Source: a virus
Length of the DNA: 41,395 nucleotides
IMG/VR virus record: IMGVR_UViG_3300027976_002258
Location: 1-41,395 of that record
Strand: one strand, 5' to 3'
The notes under the pieces were generated by a model, which saw only the letters and a list, made by a program, of their open reading frames with translations, had not been told where the DNA came from and ran no database searches. Every line of letters starts with the position of its first letter. Within the stretch, counting starts at the first letter, position 1. Positions 1,267 through 26,455 of this stretch are shown here, in pieces. Position numbers and translations under genes: made by a program.

Positions 1267-3240
1267 ATGCTTAAAAGGACAGATACTCCATTCCTCGATC
1301 AATACGGCGAGGATTTAACAAAGATTGCAGCAGAAGGCAAATTAGACCCAATAATAGGGCGTGAAAAGGAAGTGAATAGAATATGCCAAATACTTTCTAG
1401 GCGCAAGAAAAACAATCCAATAATATTAGGAAATGCAGGGACGGGAAAAACCGCAATTGTCGATTTTATTGCCCAATTGATCGTAGACAAGAAAGTGGCT
1501 ATGACTCTTCTAAATAAACGTATAATATCCTTAAGTATGGCCAACATTGTTGCCGGAACAAAATATAGAGGCGAATTTGAGGAACGTATGAAAAAAATTG
1601 TAGAGGAACTTAAAGGAAACAGAGACATCATTATATTTATTGACGAGATACATACGATGGTTGGAGCAGGTGGAACTAGTGGTTCATTAGATGCTGCCAA
1701 TATATTAAAACCTGCACTTTCTAGAGGTGAAATACAATGTATTGGCGCAACTACTTTAGATGAATACAGAGAACATATAGAATCAGACAGTGCCCTTACT
1801 CGTAGGTTTCAAGAAGTCTTTATAGATCCACCATCAACAATTGACACTATTGAAATATTAAATCGAATAAAACATAATTATGAAGATTTTCATTGTGTTT
1901 CATATACAGCTGAAGCGATTGAAGCATGTGTAATTCTTTCAGATCGATATATTAAACAGCGGGAATTGCCAGACAAGGCTATTGACTTACTTGATGAGGC
2001 AGGATCCAAGGTGCATTTAAAGGAAGTTAAGATACCAAAACATGTTAGAGAACTTGAAGATGAGGCATTAGTTCTAAAGACTTTAAAATTGGATGCTGTA
2101 GAAGCGCAAGACTATGAAAAAGCAGGAAAGTTTAGAGACTTAGAAATTAATAAGCGTACGGACATTGACATTAAAACAAATGAGTGGGAAATTGCATTAC
2201 GCCAAAATAAAAAAACAGTTACGTATGATGATATAGCAGCTGTTATATCGGAGTCGACTGGAATTCCTGTTACTAGATTAACTGATGATGAAAGTCGAAT
2301 TATAATTGGAATGGAAAAGGAATTAAAGTCTATGATTATTGGACAAGATACTGCAGTTGAATTACTATGCAGAGTTATTAAAAGGAGTAGAACTGGAGTA
2401 AGTTCTTCGAATAAACCAATTGGTTCGTTTATGTTCATTGGTCCAAGTGGAACTGGAAAAACCGTTACTACTAAAATTTTATCTGAGTACTATTTTGGAG
2501 GAGAGGACTCATTAATTAGAATTGACATGTCAGAATATCAGGAGAAGTTCGACATAAGTAAGCTTATAGGTTCTCCGCCTGGATATGTCGGTCATGACGA
2601 CGGAGGGCAATTAACAGAAAGAGTTAGACGAAACCCATATTCTGTTGTTCTATTTGATGAGATAGAAAAAGCGCATCCTGACATTTTTAATGTATTGCTT
2701 CAAGTTTTAGATGAAGGTCGACTTACTGATGCATTAGGGCGGACTATTGACTTCACTAATACTATTATAATAATGACAAGCAATGTTGGGGCTAGAAAGG
2801 TTTCTGATTTTGGAACAGGAATTGGATTTTCAAGTTCATCTTCAACAACGTCACATAAAATACAAATGGAATTAATTATTAAAAAAGAACTTAAATTAAA
2901 ATTTGCTCCGGAGTTTCTGAATCGAATCGATGAAATTGTTCTATTCGATAATTTAAAACCAGAAGACGTTTTGAAGATTGCAGAAATTGAAGTTCAAAAA
3001 ACAATTGAACGAATGGAATCACAGGATTATATTATTAGGATTTCTAAATCAGCCATATCATTTTTAGCAGAAAAAGGGTTCGACGTCGCGTATGGCGCAA
3101 GGCCTCTTAAACGTGCAGTTCAAACATATATTGAAGACTTATTAGCAGATTCAATTTTAGAAAAAACAATAGTGAAAGGCACAAAGATTTATAATATATC
3201 GCATATTAAAGGAGAAGATAAACTTTACATAAAACAATAG
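1267..3240 (+). CDS. ClpA/ClpC-type AAA+ unfoldase, N-domain missing
   Basis: This 657-residue protein has both AAA+ modules of class I Clp/Hsp100 unfoldases. D1 carries Walker A GNAGTGKT (55-62), pore loop KYRGEF (99-104), Walker B IIFIDE (122-127) and arginines at 179-180. A short UVR-like stretch DYEKAGKFRDLE (282-293) stands where ClpC has its middle domain. D2 carries Walker A GPSGTGKT (392-399), pore loop GYVG (439-442) and Walker B VLFDE (461-465). An I-G-F tripeptide at 519-521 sits where ClpA/ClpC hold the loop that docks into ClpP. The N-terminal substrate/adaptor domain (about 145 residues in ClpA/ClpC) is absent: the protein begins at the linker before D1. With clpP 0.9 kb downstream it should form a complete phage-encoded ATP-dependent protease; it could also work with host ClpP. 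Confidence 0.92.
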   Translation: MLKRTDTPFLDQYGEDLTKIAAEGKLDPIIGREKEVNRICQILSRRKKNNPIILGNAGTGKTAIVDFIAQLIVDKKVAMTLLNKRIISLSMANIVAGTKYRGEFEERMKKIVEELKGNRDIIIFIDEIHTMVGAGGTSGSLDAANILKPALSRGEIQCIGATTLDEYREHIESDSALTRRFQEVFIDPPSTIDTIEILNRIKHNYEDFHCVSYTAEAIEACVILSDRYIKQRELPDKAIDLLDEAGSKVHLKEVKIPKHVRELEDEALVLKTLKLDAVEAQDYEKAGKFRDLEINKRTDIDIKTNEWEIALRQNKKTVTYDDIAAVISESTGIPVTRLTDDESRIIIGMEKELKSMIIGQDTAVELLCRVIKRSRTGVSSSNKPIGSFMFIGPSGTGKTVTTKILSEYYFGGEDSLIRIDMSEYQEKFDISKLIGSPPGYVGHDDGGQLTERVRRNPYSVVLFDEIEKAHPDIFNVLLQVLDEGRLTDALGRTIDFTNTIIIMTSNVGARKVSDFGTGIGFSSSSSTTSHKIQMELIIKKELKLKFAPEFLNRIDEIVLFDNLKPEDVLKIAEIEVQKTIERMESQDYIIRISKSAISFLAEKGFDVAYGARPLKRAVQTYIEDLLADSILEKTIVKGTKIYNISHIKGEDKLYIKQ

Positions 3241-4111: not shown

Positions 4112-4816
4112 ATGCATTACAATCCAAAAAACAAAGAATTTCAAAGATATGCTCAATCTGAATTTGGAGTATCTTCATTAAATTTAGACTACCATCAATC
4201 AAATTTGGAGAGCTCTATGACTCCATATATTTTAGAGGAACGCGAAATGCGAGTTACTCAAATGGATATTTTCTCGAGACTTATGGCTGATAGGATTTTA
4301 TGGGTAGCTGGCACTGTTAATGACAAGATGTCAATTATAACCCAAGCACAACTTATGTTTTTAGATAGCACCGGTCAACATCTAGACATAACGATGCACA
4401 TTGATTCACCGGGAGGTTCAGTCAAATCTGGTCTTTCAATAGTGGACGTAATGGACTGGATAAAAAGCGACATAAAAACAGTTAACACTGGAATTTGTGC
4501 GTCAATGGGATCGATTTTACTAGGAGCAGGAACAAAGGGTAAACGCAGTAGTTTACGACATTCAACGACGATGTTGCATATGTCATCAGGTGGGTTCTCA
4601 GGAAATATCCAAGATGCAGAAATCAACTACAAGGAATGGCAAAAAGTAAACAAAGAGTTATTCGTTTTACTTGGTTCATACTGTGGCAAAACAGCAGAAA
4701 CTGTCATGGCAGATGCTACACGAGATTTTTGGCTTTCTGCCGAAGAGGCAGTTGAATATGGCATCATTGATGAAGTAATTAATCCTATTAAATCACAATC
4801 TAAAAAAACGAAATAA
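4112..4816 (+). CDS. clpP: ClpP serine protease
   Basis: The 234-residue protein matches the ClpP peptidase family. The catalytic triad is Ser131 (ICASMGS), His156 (TMLHMSSGG) and Asp205 (TRDFWLSA); the spacings of 25 and 49 residues equal those of E. coli ClpP (97, 122, 171). IDSPGGSV (97-104) supplies the oxyanion-hole glycines. The N-terminus is about 35 residues longer than mature E. coli ClpP, possibly a cleaved propeptide or altered axial loop. Beyond a role with the N-truncated unfoldase at 1267, ClpP-fold enzymes also serve as phage prohead proteases, so capsid maturation is another possible job. The stop shares its last base with the next ATG. Confidence 0.93.
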   Translation: MHYNPKNKEFQRYAQSEFGVSSLNLDYHQSNLESSMTPYILEEREMRVTQMDIFSRLMADRILWVAGTVNDKMSIITQAQLMFLDSTGQHLDITMHIDSPGGSVKSGLSIVDVMDWIKSDIKTVNTGICASMGSILLGAGTKGKRSSLRHSTTMLHMSSGGFSGNIQDAEINYKEWQKVNKELFVLLGSYCGKTAETVMADATRDFWLSAEEAVEYGIIDEVINPIKSQSKKTK

Positions 4817-5758: not shown

Positions 5759-5842
5759 AAACTTTAACAAAACTTTAACACTTTATTTTTTCATATTAAC
5801 CGGAAATTGATTAAATTTACTTATAATAATTAATCAAATCAC
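5759..5842 (+). promoter_or_regulatory. Repeated promoter-like element, copy 1
   Basis: First of three near-identical elements (others at 8232 and 11176). In order it holds two perfect tandem copies of aaactttaaca (5759-5769, 5770-5780), a cttt-plus-T tract, catRYtaacc, and a TATAAT (5822-5827) placed between inverted arms TTGATTA (5807-5813) and TAATCAA (5831-5837). The arms start 24 nt apart in all three copies. The ATG at 5843 follows directly. Conservation of the order and spacing supports a phage-specific promoter with an overlapping operator. Confidence 0.75.
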
Positions 5843-6106
5843 ATGGCAACAAATCAGATCACATTAAAAAAATACGTTGAAAATCCAAAGATAGGAAAAA
5901 CGTATTACTTTATTTTCGCAGGTACATTGATGCAAGGACCTATTATTTCATTAGACCATGAACTTTCAAAACAGGATGGGCATAAATGGTTTTGGATGAA
6001 GGAGCGAGAAGGAACATATATCAGTAAAACTAAGAGCACATATCCAATATCAATATATAAGATATTTAGCGATATAAATGATGTTAATAATGTACGTAAA
6101 AACTAA
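5843..6106 (+). CDS. Hypothetical protein (87 aa)
   Basis: I do not recognise this protein. It is lysine-rich, apparently soluble, with aromatic patches (YYFIF near 21-25, WFWM near 49-52) suggesting a small beta-rich domain. It is the first gene behind promoter-like copy 1, with a short A-rich leader, and ends 6 nt before the exonuclease gene, so the two are probably co-transcribed. Confidence 0.6.
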   Translation: MATNQITLKKYVENPKIGKTYYFIFAGTLMQGPIISLDHELSKQDGHKWFWMKEREGTYISKTKSTYPISIYKIFSDINDVNNVRKN

Positions 6107-8231: not shown

Positions 8232-8323
8232 AAACTTTAACAAAACTTTAACACTTTAAATTTTCATGTTAACCATAAATTGATTAGATTTACTTATAAT
8301 AATTAATCAAATACACTACAATT
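8232..8323 (+). promoter_or_regulatory. Repeated promoter-like element, copy 2
   Basis: Same architecture as the element at 5759: tandem aaactttaaca copies at 8232-8242 and 8243-8253, catgttaacc, then TATAAT (8295-8300) between arms TTGATTA (8280-8286) and TAATCAA (8304-8310). It lies between the leftward membrane gene and the ATG at 8324 and would drive the rightward small-gene cluster. Confidence 0.75.
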
Positions 8324-8563
8324 ATGATACCAATGACTATTTCAAATGGAAAAACCAATAAGCTTTGGCTTAAAAACAGAATTTTAAATGGTACTGTTCT
8401 AATGTTTGAACAAAATCAAAAGAATGACAATGGTTATAAATTGTTAACACCAAAAAAAGCTCTGGCTTTGTTTTATGGATTGAGACTATGGTTTAATGGA
8501 GATATGATAATTGGATGCTATGGCACTTCATATTATTACAAATTCACAATAAAAACATCTTAA
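8324..8563 (+). CDS. Hypothetical protein (79 aa)
   Basis: I do not recognise this protein. It is small, basic and rich in aromatic residues, without a clear membrane helix. It is the first gene behind promoter-like copy 2 and is followed 23 nt later by the first EEYxxC-family gene. The products behind the three copies of the element (here, 5843 and 11262) do not look alike. Confidence 0.6.
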   Translation: MIPMTISNGKTNKLWLKNRILNGTVLMFEQNQKNDNGYKLLTPKKALALFYGLRLWFNGDMIIGCYGTSYYYKFTIKTS

Positions 8564-11176: not shown

Positions 11177-11261
11177 AACTTTAACAAAAATTTAACACTT
11201 TAAATTTTCATGCTAACCTGAAATTGATTAGATTTACATATAATAATTAATCAAATACAAT
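11176..11261 (+). promoter_or_regulatory. Repeated promoter-like element, copy 3
   Basis: Same order as at 5759 and 8232: aaactttaaca (11176-11186) and a one-base variant aaaatttaaca (11187-11197), catgctaacc, and TATAAT (11239-11244) between TTGATTA (11224-11230) and TAATCAA (11248-11254). It starts at the last base of the RNase HII stop codon and ends at the ATG at 11262. Confidence 0.75.
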
Positions 11262-11555
11262 ATGAACACACTATCAAAATTTGAAATCGTTAGAGACATT
11301 GTTCGAGTTTATCTTAGAGAAAATGGAAAATATGCAAATCTTTCGGAATTAGACTCTTATAACGAACATATAATTGCAACGGGAACATCTATTCTTTGTA
11401 CCAAATGGAAAATAAACAGTGGTGGTGGCTTCGTCCAAGCATTTGTTAACAATGATTTATACGGAGCAATCTCAAGAGCCGATTGTATAAACATACATGC
11501 ACTTATGTTCTATAGTATGTTATCACATAACAATTCTGCTCCAACTTTTAAATAA
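11262..11555 (+). CDS. Hypothetical protein (97 aa)
   Basis: I do not recognise it. The first 20 residues look like an amphipathic helix (KFEIVRDIVRVYLRENGKY), followed by mixed segments with two cysteines (46 and 75). No membrane segment is seen. It appears to be the only gene between promoter-like copy 3 and the gene at 11604, which has its own candidate late promoter. Confidence 0.6.
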   Translation: MNTLSKFEIVRDIVRVYLRENGKYANLSELDSYNEHIIATGTSILCTKWKINSGGGFVQAFVNNDLYGAISRADCINIHALMFYSMLSHNNSAPTFK

Positions 11556-19401: not shown

Positions 19402-20592
19402 ATGTCAGATTTTAAAACATTAATGGATTTTAGGAAAGGTTCGTATAGGAAGTTCCCATACCAGGATCCTACATATCTTTCGTTTGCATTATTGTTTGAT
19501 TTTTCAGACGTGGGAAATTCACCACTTTTAGCAGGTGGAGCTGAAGCGTTTCTAACTACACTTTCTGAAAATGCAGGTACTGATTCAATTAATTATAAAG
19601 ACAGATTAAATGACTTACAAAACTTCATAACAACATTGAACACCATTAATCGTGAACTTCCATGGTTTTGGCAATCTATAAAGGGAGTTGAAAGGTTACA
19701 GCAATATAATCCGGAAAATGCATTTATAGGCGGAGACGATGCAAAACTTGAAATAGAAACTCTAGAATCTTTGAATCTTACAATTTCTGGTTTAATGCAT
19801 CTATATAGAAGAGCAATTTTTGATGAGAAAAAATGGGTATATATAATGCCTCCTAATCTAAGAAAATTTAGAATGTGGATTTATGTTACCGAAATACGAT
19901 CAATTGCTATTAACACTGATGTTAAAATGAATGGATTTAATAAAGATGATCTTAAAAGTTTCCCTGATAATTTTAAACCAAGTGTTACTACCACTAACAA
20001 AAATGCAGATATATCAGGTACTGCTGGGAGACCATACTTTCTATTAGGTATTAAATCATGTGAGTTTGACATAAAATCAGGTACTACTATATTTGCTGAT
20101 CTTAATAAAAATCCAACAATGGCAACAGAATCTCTTAATATTATTTATGATGCACTTGAAAAAGTTGAAGCACGTGTATTGAATGGTATAATTGAACAAA
20201 GTTATGCTGGAACACAACATGCACCATCCCCTGATAGTGAGACGTTCAACCCATCTACAAAAACACCATTAGAGTTCGCAAAAGAAAAAGGCAAAGGTAA
20301 ACTCGATAAAATTTATGAGAAGGCTGAGTCTGACTTGAATACCCTATCTGAATCAAAGAAAAGAGAAGCACTTCAAAAACTAAAAGATGAAACCTTAAAT
20401 AGAATTCCTAAATTTGAAAATGTATTCTCAAATGCAATTAGAAAAGTAGATCAGGCTTCTTCCGATGTAATGCGTGGCAAAAACATTGGTAATGCTATTA
20501 AAGATAATGTACATGGAATTGTTCCAGGAACTACTATAGGCCAAGGTCTCAATAGAGCAGCAATAAATAACTTAGGCAATATTTATAAATAA
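19402..20592 (+). CDS. Tail-tube/baseplate junction protein (396 aa)
   Basis: The central part, with KWVYIMPPNLRKFRMWIYVT (about 142-161) and PYFLLGIKSCEFDIKSGTTI, fits the tube-like fold used in gp19/gp48/gp54-type proteins of large myoviruses: strand, peptide-rich loop, then a C-x-F-D-I motif. The C-terminal 130 residues are helical and charged. I infer a tube-initiation or junction role from this and from the position between hub and spike genes. Identity with a particular T4 protein is not claimed. Its last codons contain TATAAATA next to the following ATG, which is coding sequence and not taken as a promoter. Confidence 0.6.
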   Translation: MSDFKTLMDFRKGSYRKFPYQDPTYLSFALLFDFSDVGNSPLLAGGAEAFLTTLSENAGTDSINYKDRLNDLQNFITTLNTINRELPWFWQSIKGVERLQQYNPENAFIGGDDAKLEIETLESLNLTISGLMHLYRRAIFDEKKWVYIMPPNLRKFRMWIYVTEIRSIAINTDVKMNGFNKDDLKSFPDNFKPSVTTTNKNADISGTAGRPYFLLGIKSCEFDIKSGTTIFADLNKNPTMATESLNIIYDALEKVEARVLNGIIEQSYAGTQHAPSPDSETFNPSTKTPLEFAKEKGKGKLDKIYEKAESDLNTLSESKKREALQKLKDETLNRIPKFENVFSNAIRKVDQASSDVMRGKNIGNAIKDNVHGIVPGTTIGQGLNRAAINNLGNIYK

Positions 20593-21311
20593 TGTCAGTA
20601 TACAATGAATTAGATAAAGATAATATTAGAGAAACACACTGGTTAGGTGAGGTTGTAGATAATGCAGATCCTAAAGATTTGGGAAGATGTAGAGTTAAGG
20701 TCTTTGGTAAATTCGATAAACTTCCTACTGATTCAATTCCATGGGCAACTCCTATGAATAGAGATATTGTTGGTTTTCATAGTGTTCCTAATATAGGAAC
20801 TATCGTGGCGGTACGATTTGATAACGGTAACATATATCATCCAGAATATTGGTTTCATATTAATCAAAGTAAGTCATTAAAGAAGGATGTACTAGATAAC
20901 TCAGCTGAAGCGCATAATGTGGTTTCGCTGGTATATGACGAGGTGCGTAACATTAGAATATATCATTCACCGGAAGACGGTCTTATTATATCAAGAGGAA
21001 CTGGAGCAAAGGAAAGACCATTGATTCAACTTGACGAAAATGGTTACATTAAAATTTCTACTAGTGAGAAGATATTCCTTGATTCTGGAAATATATTCTT
21101 AAGCAATACTGGTGAAGGTACTGAAGATGATACAGAACCAGCAGTTAGAGGCGTTTCATTAGAAAAATGGCTGAATAAATTATTAGATGATTATAAGTCG
21201 CATATACATCCGACTCCAACTGGGCCCTCAGGTCCTCCATCGCCTCCGACTCCATCTATCATTTCAAGTCTTAAGCGCTCACATATAACATATCAACAGC
21301 TAAATAAATAA
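20592..21311 (+). CDS. Baseplate spike protein, gp5/gpV-like (no lysozyme domain)
   Basis: The N-terminal 95 residues form the OB-fold of gp5/VgrG/gpV spike proteins: WLGEVVDNADPKDLGRCRVK, then WATPM, and GTIVAVRFDNGN followed by P-E-Y. The middle section has short beta repeats expected in a needle stem, and the C-terminus contains HIHPTPTGPSGPPSPPTP, common in this family. The lysozyme domain of T4 gp5 is missing, as in P2 gpV and many large phages. The first base follows on from the previous stop (TAATG). Forms the membrane-piercing tip with the hub. Confidence 0.82.
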   Translation: MSVYNELDKDNIRETHWLGEVVDNADPKDLGRCRVKVFGKFDKLPTDSIPWATPMNRDIVGFHSVPNIGTIVAVRFDNGNIYHPEYWFHINQSKSLKKDVLDNSAEAHNVVSLVYDEVRNIRIYHSPEDGLIISRGTGAKERPLIQLDENGYIKISTSEKIFLDSGNIFLSNTGEGTEDDTEPAVRGVSLEKWLNKLLDDYKSHIHPTPTGPSGPPSPPTPSIISSLKRSHITYQQLNK

Positions 21312-22918: not shown

Positions 22919-22964
22919 AAAATAGAATAAATAATTTAATTATTAACCTTTAAATATAAAAATA

Positions 22965-24182
22965 ATGTCAGAAGCTGTTTTAACAGAAGAAATTACAACA
23001 AACTTACTTAATGACTTTGACTGGAGCTCATATTCAAATGATTGCCCATCAAGTATTAGAAAACCAAACCCCCACATCAAAGCGCCAGAAGGAGTCAAGG
23101 TTTTTTCAAGAGAACCATATGCCCAAGAACTACTTAATTTAATGGAAAGCCATTGGTGTGAAAACAATATAATTAAATTAATTAGTGTTGTAAATGCAGG
23201 TGAAACTTATACTGGTAAAGTATATGGGATTGACGATGAATGGGCTACGATCGACATTGGTTATCGTGAAATGGTATATGTCCAATTGTCAAAAGAATCT
23301 GAAATTTCTAGAACAAAATTAATGCCTGGAACTGAAATATCAGTTGAAATTGTAAAAGATAGAGCATTAAACTCTAGAGGGTTTTTATTGGGATCAGTTG
23401 AGGCTGGAATTAAAGCGGCGCTATTTAGAGAAATATTAGATGCTATTGAAACTGGAAATACTGCTTACATCGGAACAGTAACTGGTATGATTCCTAATGG
23501 AGGTTATTTCGTTAACATACAGGGGGTTGATTGCTTTATGCCAGGTTCACTTGCTGGCATTAATAAACTAGTAGACTTTGATGTATTAATTAATACACAG
23601 TTATATGTTGTTCCAATGAGCTACTCTCCAGAAAAAGGAACAGTAATAGTATCACATAGAAAATATTTACAGGCGTTGATTCCAGGTGCAGTTGAGAACC
23701 TTATAAACAATTATGGAGAAATGAAAGAAGGAGTGGTTACAGGTTCTACTAAATATGGTGTGTTTGTTGGGTTTGACAATTGTTTAACAGGAATGATATA
23801 CACAAACGACTTAAATCCAGAAATGGCTAAAAAACAACAAAATAGAGAAATTAACCCAGGCGATATTATTGAGTTCAGAGTAAAAGAAGTAATTAGTGAT
23901 ACTAAAATCATGCTTACTCAACTTGAACATGTTGAAATAATAGACCCATGGGCTGATGTTATTACAAGGTATACTGCATTTCCAGTAGAGGTAAGAGGAA
24001 CTATTAAATCCATTAAAGAATACGGGGTATTTGTAGATATTGGAGCAGGCATTATTGGATTACTTCATGTATCGGAATTGCCAGACGAAATTAAAATAGA
24101 TTCTCTAGTGAATGGTGATAACATAACAGTTCAAATTACGCGTATAGATGTTTCCACTAGAAAGGTGTTCTTGAAACTATAA
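22965..24182 (+). CDS. Ribosomal protein S1-like RNA-binding protein (four S1 domains)
   Basis: Four consecutive S1-type OB folds are visible: about 75-150 (GKVYGIDDEWATIDIGY), 163-232 (GTVTGMIPNGGYFVNIQGVD), 252-322 (GVVTGSTKYGVFVGFDN) and 343-405 (GTIKSIKEYGVFVDIGAGII, with GLLHVSEL). The first 70 residues are unlike S1. Bacterial S1 has six domains and helps mRNA bind the small subunit, above all where Shine-Dalgarno sequences are weak, as in this window. I infer that it diverts ribosomes or binds phage RNA; a virion role is possible because of its neighbours. It lies between tail genes and is followed by a strong terminator. Confidence 0.88.
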   Translation: MSEAVLTEEITTNLLNDFDWSSYSNDCPSSIRKPNPHIKAPEGVKVFSREPYAQELLNLMESHWCENNIIKLISVVNAGETYTGKVYGIDDEWATIDIGYREMVYVQLSKESEISRTKLMPGTEISVEIVKDRALNSRGFLLGSVEAGIKAALFREILDAIETGNTAYIGTVTGMIPNGGYFVNIQGVDCFMPGSLAGINKLVDFDVLINTQLYVVPMSYSPEKGTVIVSHRKYLQALIPGAVENLINNYGEMKEGVVTGSTKYGVFVGFDNCLTGMIYTNDLNPEMAKKQQNREINPGDIIEFRVKEVISDTKIMLTQLEHVEIIDPWADVITRYTAFPVEVRGTIKSIKEYGVFVDIGAGIIGLLHVSELPDEIKIDSLVNGDNITVQITRIDVSTRKVFLKL

Positions 24183-24212
24183 AAAATGTTAATAACTTTT
24201 TGAAAATATTAG

Positions 24213-24242
24213 AGCCCATATTTTTTTATATGGGCTTTTTTG
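24213..24242 (+). terminator. Intrinsic terminator after the S1-like gene
   Basis: A perfect 9-bp stem, AGCCCATAT (24213-24221) with ATATGGGCT (24228-24236), has a 6-T loop and continues into a T run (to 24241). This is the clearest intrinsic terminator in the window and separates the S1-like gene from the gene at 24278. Confidence 0.9.
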
Positions 24243-25162: not shown

Positions 25163-26455
25163 ATGAATCATATTAATTCAGTACACATTCTTCAAAATGC
25201 CCTTTGCGGGGTTGAATTCGAATTTTTCTCAAATTTCAGTGCAGATGAGACTGCAAAAAAACTAGCGGTTCTGCTTGGCAAAACAATTCATGTTGAAACT
25301 AAAGCACATAGTGACTTTGAAGTAACACAGGACTCGTTTAAAATAGAGCCAGACATGTCTGGAGGCGCAAAACTGCTAGAACTTGTAACTGGCGCTCTTC
25401 CATATAATGCAGCGCGACTAATGATTATTAATGTATGTCAGTGGATAGAAGAAAATGGATCTACGAATGATAGAACATCAATTCACTTAAACCTTTCTTT
25501 TGACAAATCTAAGATTGATAATAAATACAGAATCTCTAAAATGAATGTTCTTAAATTCATTTTAGATTTTAATGAAGAACAAGTGTTTAAGTTTTTTCCA
25601 AAAAGAGAAAATTCTGCATACGCTAAATCTATTAAGTTTATTATACCAAAAGAAGATACTTACTTTTTTGATGGTAATCATATAAACCAACAAAACTTTA
25701 CATATCCTGACTCTAAGTATTACGGCGTTAATTTTGACAAGAGACATAAAAATTATCTTGAATTTAGGTATATAGGAGGATCCGATTGGCATAAGAAGAC
25801 ATCAACTATATTGTACCTTCTAGACCAATTTCTATTGCAAATATGGAATTCATCAGAAAATAATGAGTTTAACACTTTAAATTCAATTGAACTTAAAAGG
25901 ATAGTTGCTGAAAATAAACGTATTATTGATGCTAGAAAGGATTGGAAGACAATTAAAGATAATTGGAAGGATGTTAAGTTTACTGTTGATTTAAAAGAAG
26001 ATCCAAGGATTGTAGATCTTTATTGGCCAAGTGTTAAACATGCGGTTATTAGATTATTCACATTTGGAGATCTTTCAAAGGGACATATTAACTATGACTC
26101 AGATTCAGGTAAAATACAGGTTAATGGCGGTAGACTTGAATACTGTGTTGATTTAGTAGGATATGAATTTATTAATTGTTTTTTAACAGGAGAATTCAAG
26201 AATTGCGATATATATTCATGCGATGTTAATGGCTCTGATATTCACTATTGTAATTTTTACAAAGGTACTCAAATAAACTCTTCAAAGCTAGATGGGTCAT
26301 ATGTACATGGAACGTGTGTCGCTACTGACTGTTATGTATATGGTAAGGGTACATTTAAAGGAACTATGAATGGTGGCATATTTAGAGAAGGTATGTATGA
26401 TAAAAAATTAGCTAAATTTAATAATGTTGAAATTGTTAAATCTAAAGCAATATAA
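25163..26455 (+). CDS. Amidoligase-like enzyme fused to a C-terminal beta-helix (430 aa)
   Basis: Residues 15-22 (CGVEFEFF), 61-84 (IEPDMSGG.., LLELVTGALP) and 101-111 (TNDRTSIHLNL) follow the order of motifs of the putative amidoligase family (glutamine-synthetase-like fold; G-V-E-x-E-F, P-D-x-S-G..E-x-V-T/S, and x-H-x-N/H). Such enzymes join amino and carboxyl groups at the cost of ATP. Residues 334-406 are pentapeptide-like turns with N/C/G steps (FINCFLTGEFKNCDIYSCDV), suggesting a right-handed beta-helix. The fusion points to a targeted modifier, possibly of a virion, cell-surface or DNA-linked molecule. Substrate is unknown. It lies in the accessory insert between hub and wedge genes. 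Confidence 0.65.
   Translation: MNHINSVHILQNALCGVEFEFFSNFSADETAKKLAVLLGKTIHVETKAHSDFEVTQDSFKIEPDMSGGAKLLELVTGALPYNAARLMIINVCQWIEENGSTNDRTSIHLNLSFDKSKIDNKYRISKMNVLKFILDFNEEQVFKFFPKRENSAYAKSIKFIIPKEDTYFFDGNHINQQNFTYPDSKYYGVNFDKRHKNYLEFRYIGGSDWHKKTSTILYLLDQFLLQIWNSSENNEFNTLNSIELKRIVAENKRIIDARKDWKTIKDNWKDVKFTVDLKEDPRIVDLYWPSVKHAVIRLFTFGDLSKGHINYDSDSGKIQVNGGRLEYCVDLVGYEFINCFLTGEFKNCDIYSCDVNGSDIHYCNFYKGTQINSSKLDGSYVHGTCVATDCYVYGKGTFKGTMNGGIFREGMYDKKLAKFNNVEIVKSKAI

What the first reader, a model, noticed from the sequence alone, without database searches (positions are those of the whole stretch)
22965..24182. A four-domain S1-like protein in a phage with Shine-Dalgarno-free genes
The protein has four S1 folds and a new N-terminal region. 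Bacterial S1 aids translation of messages with weak ribosome sites; the genes of this phage use A-rich leaders. It may bring phage mRNAs to ribosomes or replace host S1. It lies within the late structural block, so it might also be carried in the virion.
Basis: partly seen in the sequence, partly recalled or inferred. Interest (0 to 1): 0.7.

Follow-up and report, generated by a model that had tools for sequence, protein, structure and literature searches.

The report
Phage S1 protein with Bacteroidota-type tail
A large marine phage carries its own shortened copy of bacterial ribosomal protein S1, whose front end resembles the S1 of its probable host group, so it may dock on host ribosomes late in infection; S1-like genes in huge phages were already reported.

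Summary
Window 22965-24182 encodes 405 aa with four OB/S1 folds, collinear with OB1-OB4 of bacterial bS1. It is a core gene of a family of large phages: S1 lies between the baseplate hub and an amidoligase gene in 136 of 136 loci that hold both neighbours. The 'new' N-terminus is partly not new: F-[DN]-W-x-x-[YF] matches Bacteroidota bS1 and is absent from the other S1s examined. A phage-specific insert of fixed length follows (F to Y always 34 residues, 39/39, Lak phages included). Phage S1s form one clade on a long branch, so this is not a recent host copy. Shine-Dalgarno-free, A-rich leaders are confirmed, but two S1-less Tenacibaculum jumbo phages have the same leaders: that trait follows the host and is no evidence for S1 function. 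In Lak and mahaphages S1 is unlinked to baseplate genes, which argues against a tail part. Best reading: a late-expressed bS1 paralogue that docks on Bacteroidota 30S subunits and recruits mRNA; docking is inferred. S1 in SD-poor huge phages was published in 2020 (PMC7162821): a new member of a known kind.

The parts
22965..24182 (+). phage S1 gene (405 aa)
22940..22954 (+). S1-specific conserved leader element TTATTAACCTTTAAA
   Evidence: motif class in 21/35 S1 leaders versus 3/564 leaders of 19 neighbouring genes (motif chosen after looking at S1 leaders)
23016..23033 (+). codons of F-D-W-S-S-Y (residues 18-23), Bacteroidota bS1-type motif
23043..23114 (+). phage-specific insert (about residues 27-50) between FDW and the helix
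   Evidence: F18 to Y52 always 34 residues
23121..23162 (+). N-terminal helix (residues 53-66) before OB1; position of the uS2-binding helix of bS1
   Evidence: uS2 contact described in PMC10123108
23205..23396 (+). OB1 (residues 81-144), Lys43-equivalent R/K kept
23466..23654 (+). OB2 (residues 168-230), aromatic pair Y/F kept
23724..23918 (+). OB3 (residues 254-318), RNA-binding aromatics kept
23985..24176 (+). OB4 (residues 341-404), all five RNA-binding positions kept
24211..24238 (+). intrinsic terminator after S1
20592..21311 (+). baseplate hub/spike OB protein (Phage_base_V), conserved upstream neighbour
25163..26455 (+). Amidoligase_2-domain protein, conserved downstream neighbour

Best explanation
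A phage-specific paralogue of ribosomal protein bS1, cut down to OB1-OB4, made late in infection of a Bacteroidota host. Its N-terminal motif, helix and OB1 dock on the 30S subunit at the uS2 site of host bS1 and compete with it. OB2-OB4 then bring A-rich, SD-free (phage) mRNA to the start site. Shown here: homology, fold, kept contact and RNA-binding positions, Bacteroidota-type N-terminus, universal retention in the family, SD-free leaders. Inferred: ribosome docking, competition with host bS1, preference for phage mRNA, late timing.
For: Collinear bS1 homology and fold. F-[DN]-W motif shared with Bacteroidota bS1 only. Lys43-equivalent is R/K in 42/45 and Phe130-equivalent F in 45/45 phage S1s; OB4 aromatic, His, acidic and basic positions kept in 36/36 of the near family. 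S1 present between its neighbours in 136/136 loci. TATATAA element in the 70 bases upstream of 27/35 S1 genes, as for operon-leading structural genes. Precedent: E. coli S1 fragment 1-106 alone displaces native S1 from ribosomes (PMC3296737). bS1 domain 4 is positioned near mRNA -12 to -15, where Bacteroidetes leaders are A-rich (PMC6847099); this phage family peaks in A at -14 to -11. Some relatives also carry bS21.
Against: No binding or infection data. S1-less Bacteroidota jumbo phages have equally SD-free genes. The two Phe of E. coli bS1 that stack on uS2 align to L/M here, though Bacteroidota bS1 mostly has L/Y. Lys117 is lost. Lak S1 lacks OB4 and the Lys43 equivalent. The window itself lacks an exact TATATAA upstream of S1.
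Confidence: 0.55

Rival explanations
1. An RNA-binding S1 protein acting off the ribosome: protecting phage mRNA, helping RNA processing, or regulating its own and other late mRNAs.
For: RNA-binding positions kept in OB3-OB4; Lak homologue lies among RNA/tRNA genes such as RNA ligase and tRNA-His guanylyltransferase; private leader element on its own gene.
Against: Keeping OB1 with its basic loop residue and a host-type N-terminal motif would be unneeded for simple RNA binding.
Confidence: 0.22
2. A decoy that displaces host bS1 and shuts down host translation, without delivering phage mRNA.
For: Known dominant-negative effect of S1 N-terminal fragments in E. coli (PMC3296737).
Against: OB3-OB4 RNA-binding residues are under constraint, which a decoy would not need; phage mRNA has the same A-rich leaders at the proposed S1 site.
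Confidence: 0.1
3. A baseplate or virion protein, or one injected with the genome.
For: Fixed place between hub and amidoligase genes in 136/136 loci and linked in LR756500.
Against: In Lak and three mahaphage genomes S1 lies far from baseplate wedge genes, and in the mahaphages far from the amidoligase gene; S1 is followed by a terminator and often has its own promoter-like element; best PDB folds are ribosomal S1.
Confidence: 0.1

Closest known systems
Possible rpS1 proteins of huge phages (Al-Shayeb et al. 2020, PMC7162821), here taken to include those in LR756500, LR745206, LR756501, LR756504
   Same: Homologous S1 proteins in large phages with few SD sequences; a translation-initiation role on or off the ribosome was already proposed there
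   Different: At most about 37% identity (LR756500); here a Bacteroidota-type FDW motif, fixed baseplate-block location, and no bS21 found in the window's nearest large relatives. That these accessions belong to that study is from memory.
Bacteroidota ribosomal protein bS1 (rpsA)
   Same: OB1-OB4 order, F-[DN]-W N-terminal motif, N-terminal helix
   Different: Bacteroidota bS1 has six S1 domains (PMC6705787); phage form has four, about 23% identity, a fixed phage-specific insert, and sits on a long separate branch
Lak megaphage (Prevotella) S1 protein
   Same: FDW motif, KVYSxExYAQ helix, same 34-residue spacing
   Different: Lacks OB4; gene lies among replication/RNA genes
Phage-encoded bS21 (PMC9723584)
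   Same: Phage ribosomal protein near structural genes, proposed late ribosome takeover in Bacteroidetes
   Different: Different protein; co-occurs with S1 only in some relatives
bS1 of Microcystis phage PhiMa05/MaAM05 (PMC13157829)
   Same: Phage-encoded bS1
   Different: Groups with other bacterial-type S1s, not in the huge-phage clade; its authors suggest acquisition from a Vampirovibrio-like host

Membership tests
ribosomal protein bS1 family | tandem S1/OB domains collinear with bS1 OB1 onward | tested here: met
ribosomal protein bS1 family | NCBIfam rpsA equivalog cut-off | tested here: not met
   best hit is rpsA, but 133.5 bits against a cut-off of 524; TIGR00717 123 against 577
ribosomal protein bS1 family | N-terminal helix and OB1 contact residues for uS2 | tested here: inconclusive
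   helix present; Lys43 as R/K in 42/45; Phe5/Phe9 not kept, nor in most Bacteroidota bS1
ribosomal protein bS1 family | RNA-binding residues in OB3-OB4 | tested here: met
   OB4 5 of 5 positions kept; OB3 aromatics and base kept, acidic position lost, His replaced by Tyr in the window
ribosomal protein bS1 family | association with the 30S subunit | not testable with these tools
   needs biochemistry
Bacteroidota-type bS1 | F-[DN]-W-x-x-[YF] near the N-terminus | tested here: met
   39 of 45 phage S1s with F[DNML]W, 5/5 Bacteroidota-type bS1, 0/9 others
Bacteroidota-type bS1 | branches within Bacteroidota rpsA | tested here: not met
   separate clade 100/100; sister relation to Bacteroidota only 69/56
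huge-phage S1 clade (PMC7162821) | groups with S1 of LR756500, mahaphages and Lak phages apart from cellular S1 | tested here: met
   support 100/100
phage virion/baseplate protein | linkage to baseplate genes across all relatives | tested here: not met
   linked in family and LR756500, unlinked in Lak and mahaphages

The most novel reading that the evidence does not exclude
An ancient, phage-only S1 lineage carries a two-part Bacteroidota ribosome anchor (FDW plus a helix at a fixed 34-residue distance) that outcompetes host bS1 late in infection. This would give phage-modified ribosomes in a host that cannot use Shine-Dalgarno pairing, with its own synthesis controlled through a private leader element.
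Probability: 0.25. Interest if true: 0.75.

Novelty: new member of a known kind. Interest (0 to 1): 0.48.

Why it matters
Start-site selection in Bacteroidota without SD pairing is an open question, and bS1 binding to A-rich leaders is a suspected but untested answer (PMC6847099). A compact four-domain phage S1 with a host-type anchor is a natural probe for it. The S1-less Tenacibaculum phages show that the published link between phage S1 and SD-poor genomes may reflect host phylum rather than function.

Tried and rejected
PHROGs has no family for this protein. A genome-contig scan found only phage-like contigs binned with Bacillota, no close cellular S1. The SD-free argument was rejected by the S1-less control phages. 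RNA structure in the S1 leader: none (z=+1.6). Rfam: no match in the window. Sigma-70 promoter scan: below the number expected by chance. Bacteroidota TAnnTTTG promoter search in the window: uninformative. No near nucleotide match in the phage collection. No host could be read from the record; Bacteroidota is inferred from the S1 motif, the nearest Clp ATPases among plasmid records and the nearest cultured jumbo phages by baseplate wedge.

Full report
OBSERVATION. The ORF at 22965-24182 encodes 405 aa. Sequence search against solved structures returns E. coli bS1 at 2.8e-30, aligned collinearly from residue 78 to 403; with a profile of 14 phage homologues the E-value is 8.6e-68. Pfam alone sees three S1 copies. 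The AlphaFold2 model (mean pLDDT 80, built from 38 homologues) has four OB barrels and a helix at 53-66 before OB1. The best structure matches in the PDB are bS1 bound to the 30S subunit (9gut_B, E 2.2e-26). The nearest predicted viral structures are proteins named S1 or S1 motif in marine and uncultured phages.

FAMILY AND CONTEXT. Two scans of IMG/VR gave 14 and then 80 loci (the second scan confirmed 497 relatives before the cut). The gene order hub - (variable gene) - S1 - (variable gene) - amidoligase - adaptor - wedge is constant. Scans started from the neighbours, not from S1, gave 136 loci with both hub and amidoligase; all 136 have S1 between them, with 72 distinct S1 sequences over all loci searched. 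S1 is therefore a core gene of this phage group. Codon-position differences show purifying selection. A 234-kb relative has almost all genes on one strand and about 29 tRNA genes, so the window is probably a fragment of a large phage. Outside the group, LR756500 (462 kb) keeps the linkage. In Lak-B1 the S1 gene lies near DnaB-like helicase, RNA ligase and tRNA-His guanylyltransferase, and in LR745206, LR756501 and LR756504 it is far from the amidoligase and wedge genes.

N-TERMINUS. hhalign of the phage profile against four Bacteroidota bS1 (99.8% probability, E 1.7e-29) aligns phage NDFDWSSY with EDFNWEAY, and an independent MAFFT alignment does the same. The motif is in 5/5 Bacteroidota-type bS1, including PDB chain 9zcd_A, which from its sequence looks like a Bacteroidota S1 (organism not read here), and in none of nine other S1s examined. 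The single-sequence shuffle test is only moderate for some members and the cellular sample is small. Phages add an insert so that the motif F and the helix Y are always 34 residues apart (39/39, including Lak at 28% identity). Mahaphage, LR756500 and L033 S1s lack the FDW motif.

CONTACT SITES. From PMC10123108, E. coli bS1 meets uS2 through Phe5, Gln7, Phe9, Glu10, Lys43 and Phe79, and OB2 meets mRNA through Lys117, Phe120 and Phe130. In phages Lys43 is R/K in 42/45, Phe120 is Y/F in all, Phe130 is F in all; Phe5 and Phe9 are not kept, and Bacteroidota bS1 mostly differ there too. OB4 keeps both aromatics, His, the acidic and the basic position in 36/36 of the near family; OB3 keeps the aromatics and the base but not the acidic position.

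PHYLOGENY. Phage S1s form one clade (100/100) on a branch of 3.64 changes per site; the grouping with Bacteroidota is weak (69/56). Recent capture of a host gene is therefore not supported. Long-branch effects cannot be excluded.

EXPRESSION SIGNALS. SD cores are depleted: 0/36 in the window against 12% of control ATGs, and 29/622 against 12.6% in the family. A peaks at -14 to -11 and -3, the pattern of F. johnsoniae (PMC6847099). However, the S1-less Tenacibaculum phages PTm1 and pT24 show the same (SD 3/65 and 1/63, A at -13/-12/-3 up to 78%). TATATAA occurs within 70 bases upstream of 27/35 S1 genes and of operon-leading structural genes, and a terminator-like hairpin follows S1 in most of the loci inspected; the window itself has no exact TATATAA there. 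A leader motif (TTAAC, TTACAC or TTCACAC, then TTT) is in 21/35 S1 leaders but 3/564 leaders of 19 other genes; it was chosen after looking at S1 leaders, so the contrast is biased upward.

HOST. The nearest plasmid-collection matches of the window's Clp ATPase are all Bacteroidota, the nearest cultured jumbo phages by baseplate wedge infect Tenacibaculum, and the S1 motif is Bacteroidota-type. The host is inferred, not shown.

MECHANISM. The kept anchor and RNA-binding positions fit a bS1 paralogue that occupies the host bS1 site and delivers mRNA. Displacement has a precedent: E. coli S1 fragment 1-106 alone displaces native S1 (PMC3296737). Some relatives also encode bS21, the protein reported to help block SD pairing in Bacteroidia (PMC9976891). 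Docking, competition and mRNA preference are inferences.

NOVELTY. S1-domain proteins in SD-poor huge phages and the initiation hypothesis are published (PMC7162821).

Noticed in passing
window about 5770-5843, 8240-8324, 11185-11262: Three copies of a regulatory-looking repeat (ACTTTAACAAAACTTTAACACTTTAAATTTTCAT.TTAACC ... ATAATAATTAATCAAAT) directly upstream of genes 5843, 8324 and 11262; a related stretch lies in L005.
   Followed up: partly
L128, L129, L130, and G014:C1:115503-115658; L125-L127: bS21 genes in several S1-carrying relatives (four contigs of this family, three mahaphages), but not in the window's nearest large relatives.
   Followed up: partly
window 1267-3240 and 4112-4816: Clp ATPase and ClpP-like protease genes close together (thymidylate synthase between them), with the ATPase nearest to Bacteroidota among plasmid records.
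   Followed up: partly
window 25163-26455: Amidoligase_2-domain protein, strictly conserved next to baseplate genes; role unknown. Also in mahaphages at sites unlinked to S1.
   Followed up: partly
L033, L034: Contigs filed under Erysipelotrichaceae and Clostridium MAGs carry huge-phage/Lak-type S1 genes, so they are probably mis-binned phage contigs.
   Followed up: no
L279-L290 (G008): 234-kb relative with about 29 tRNA genes, mostly in one cluster, and nearly all genes on one strand.
   Followed up: partly
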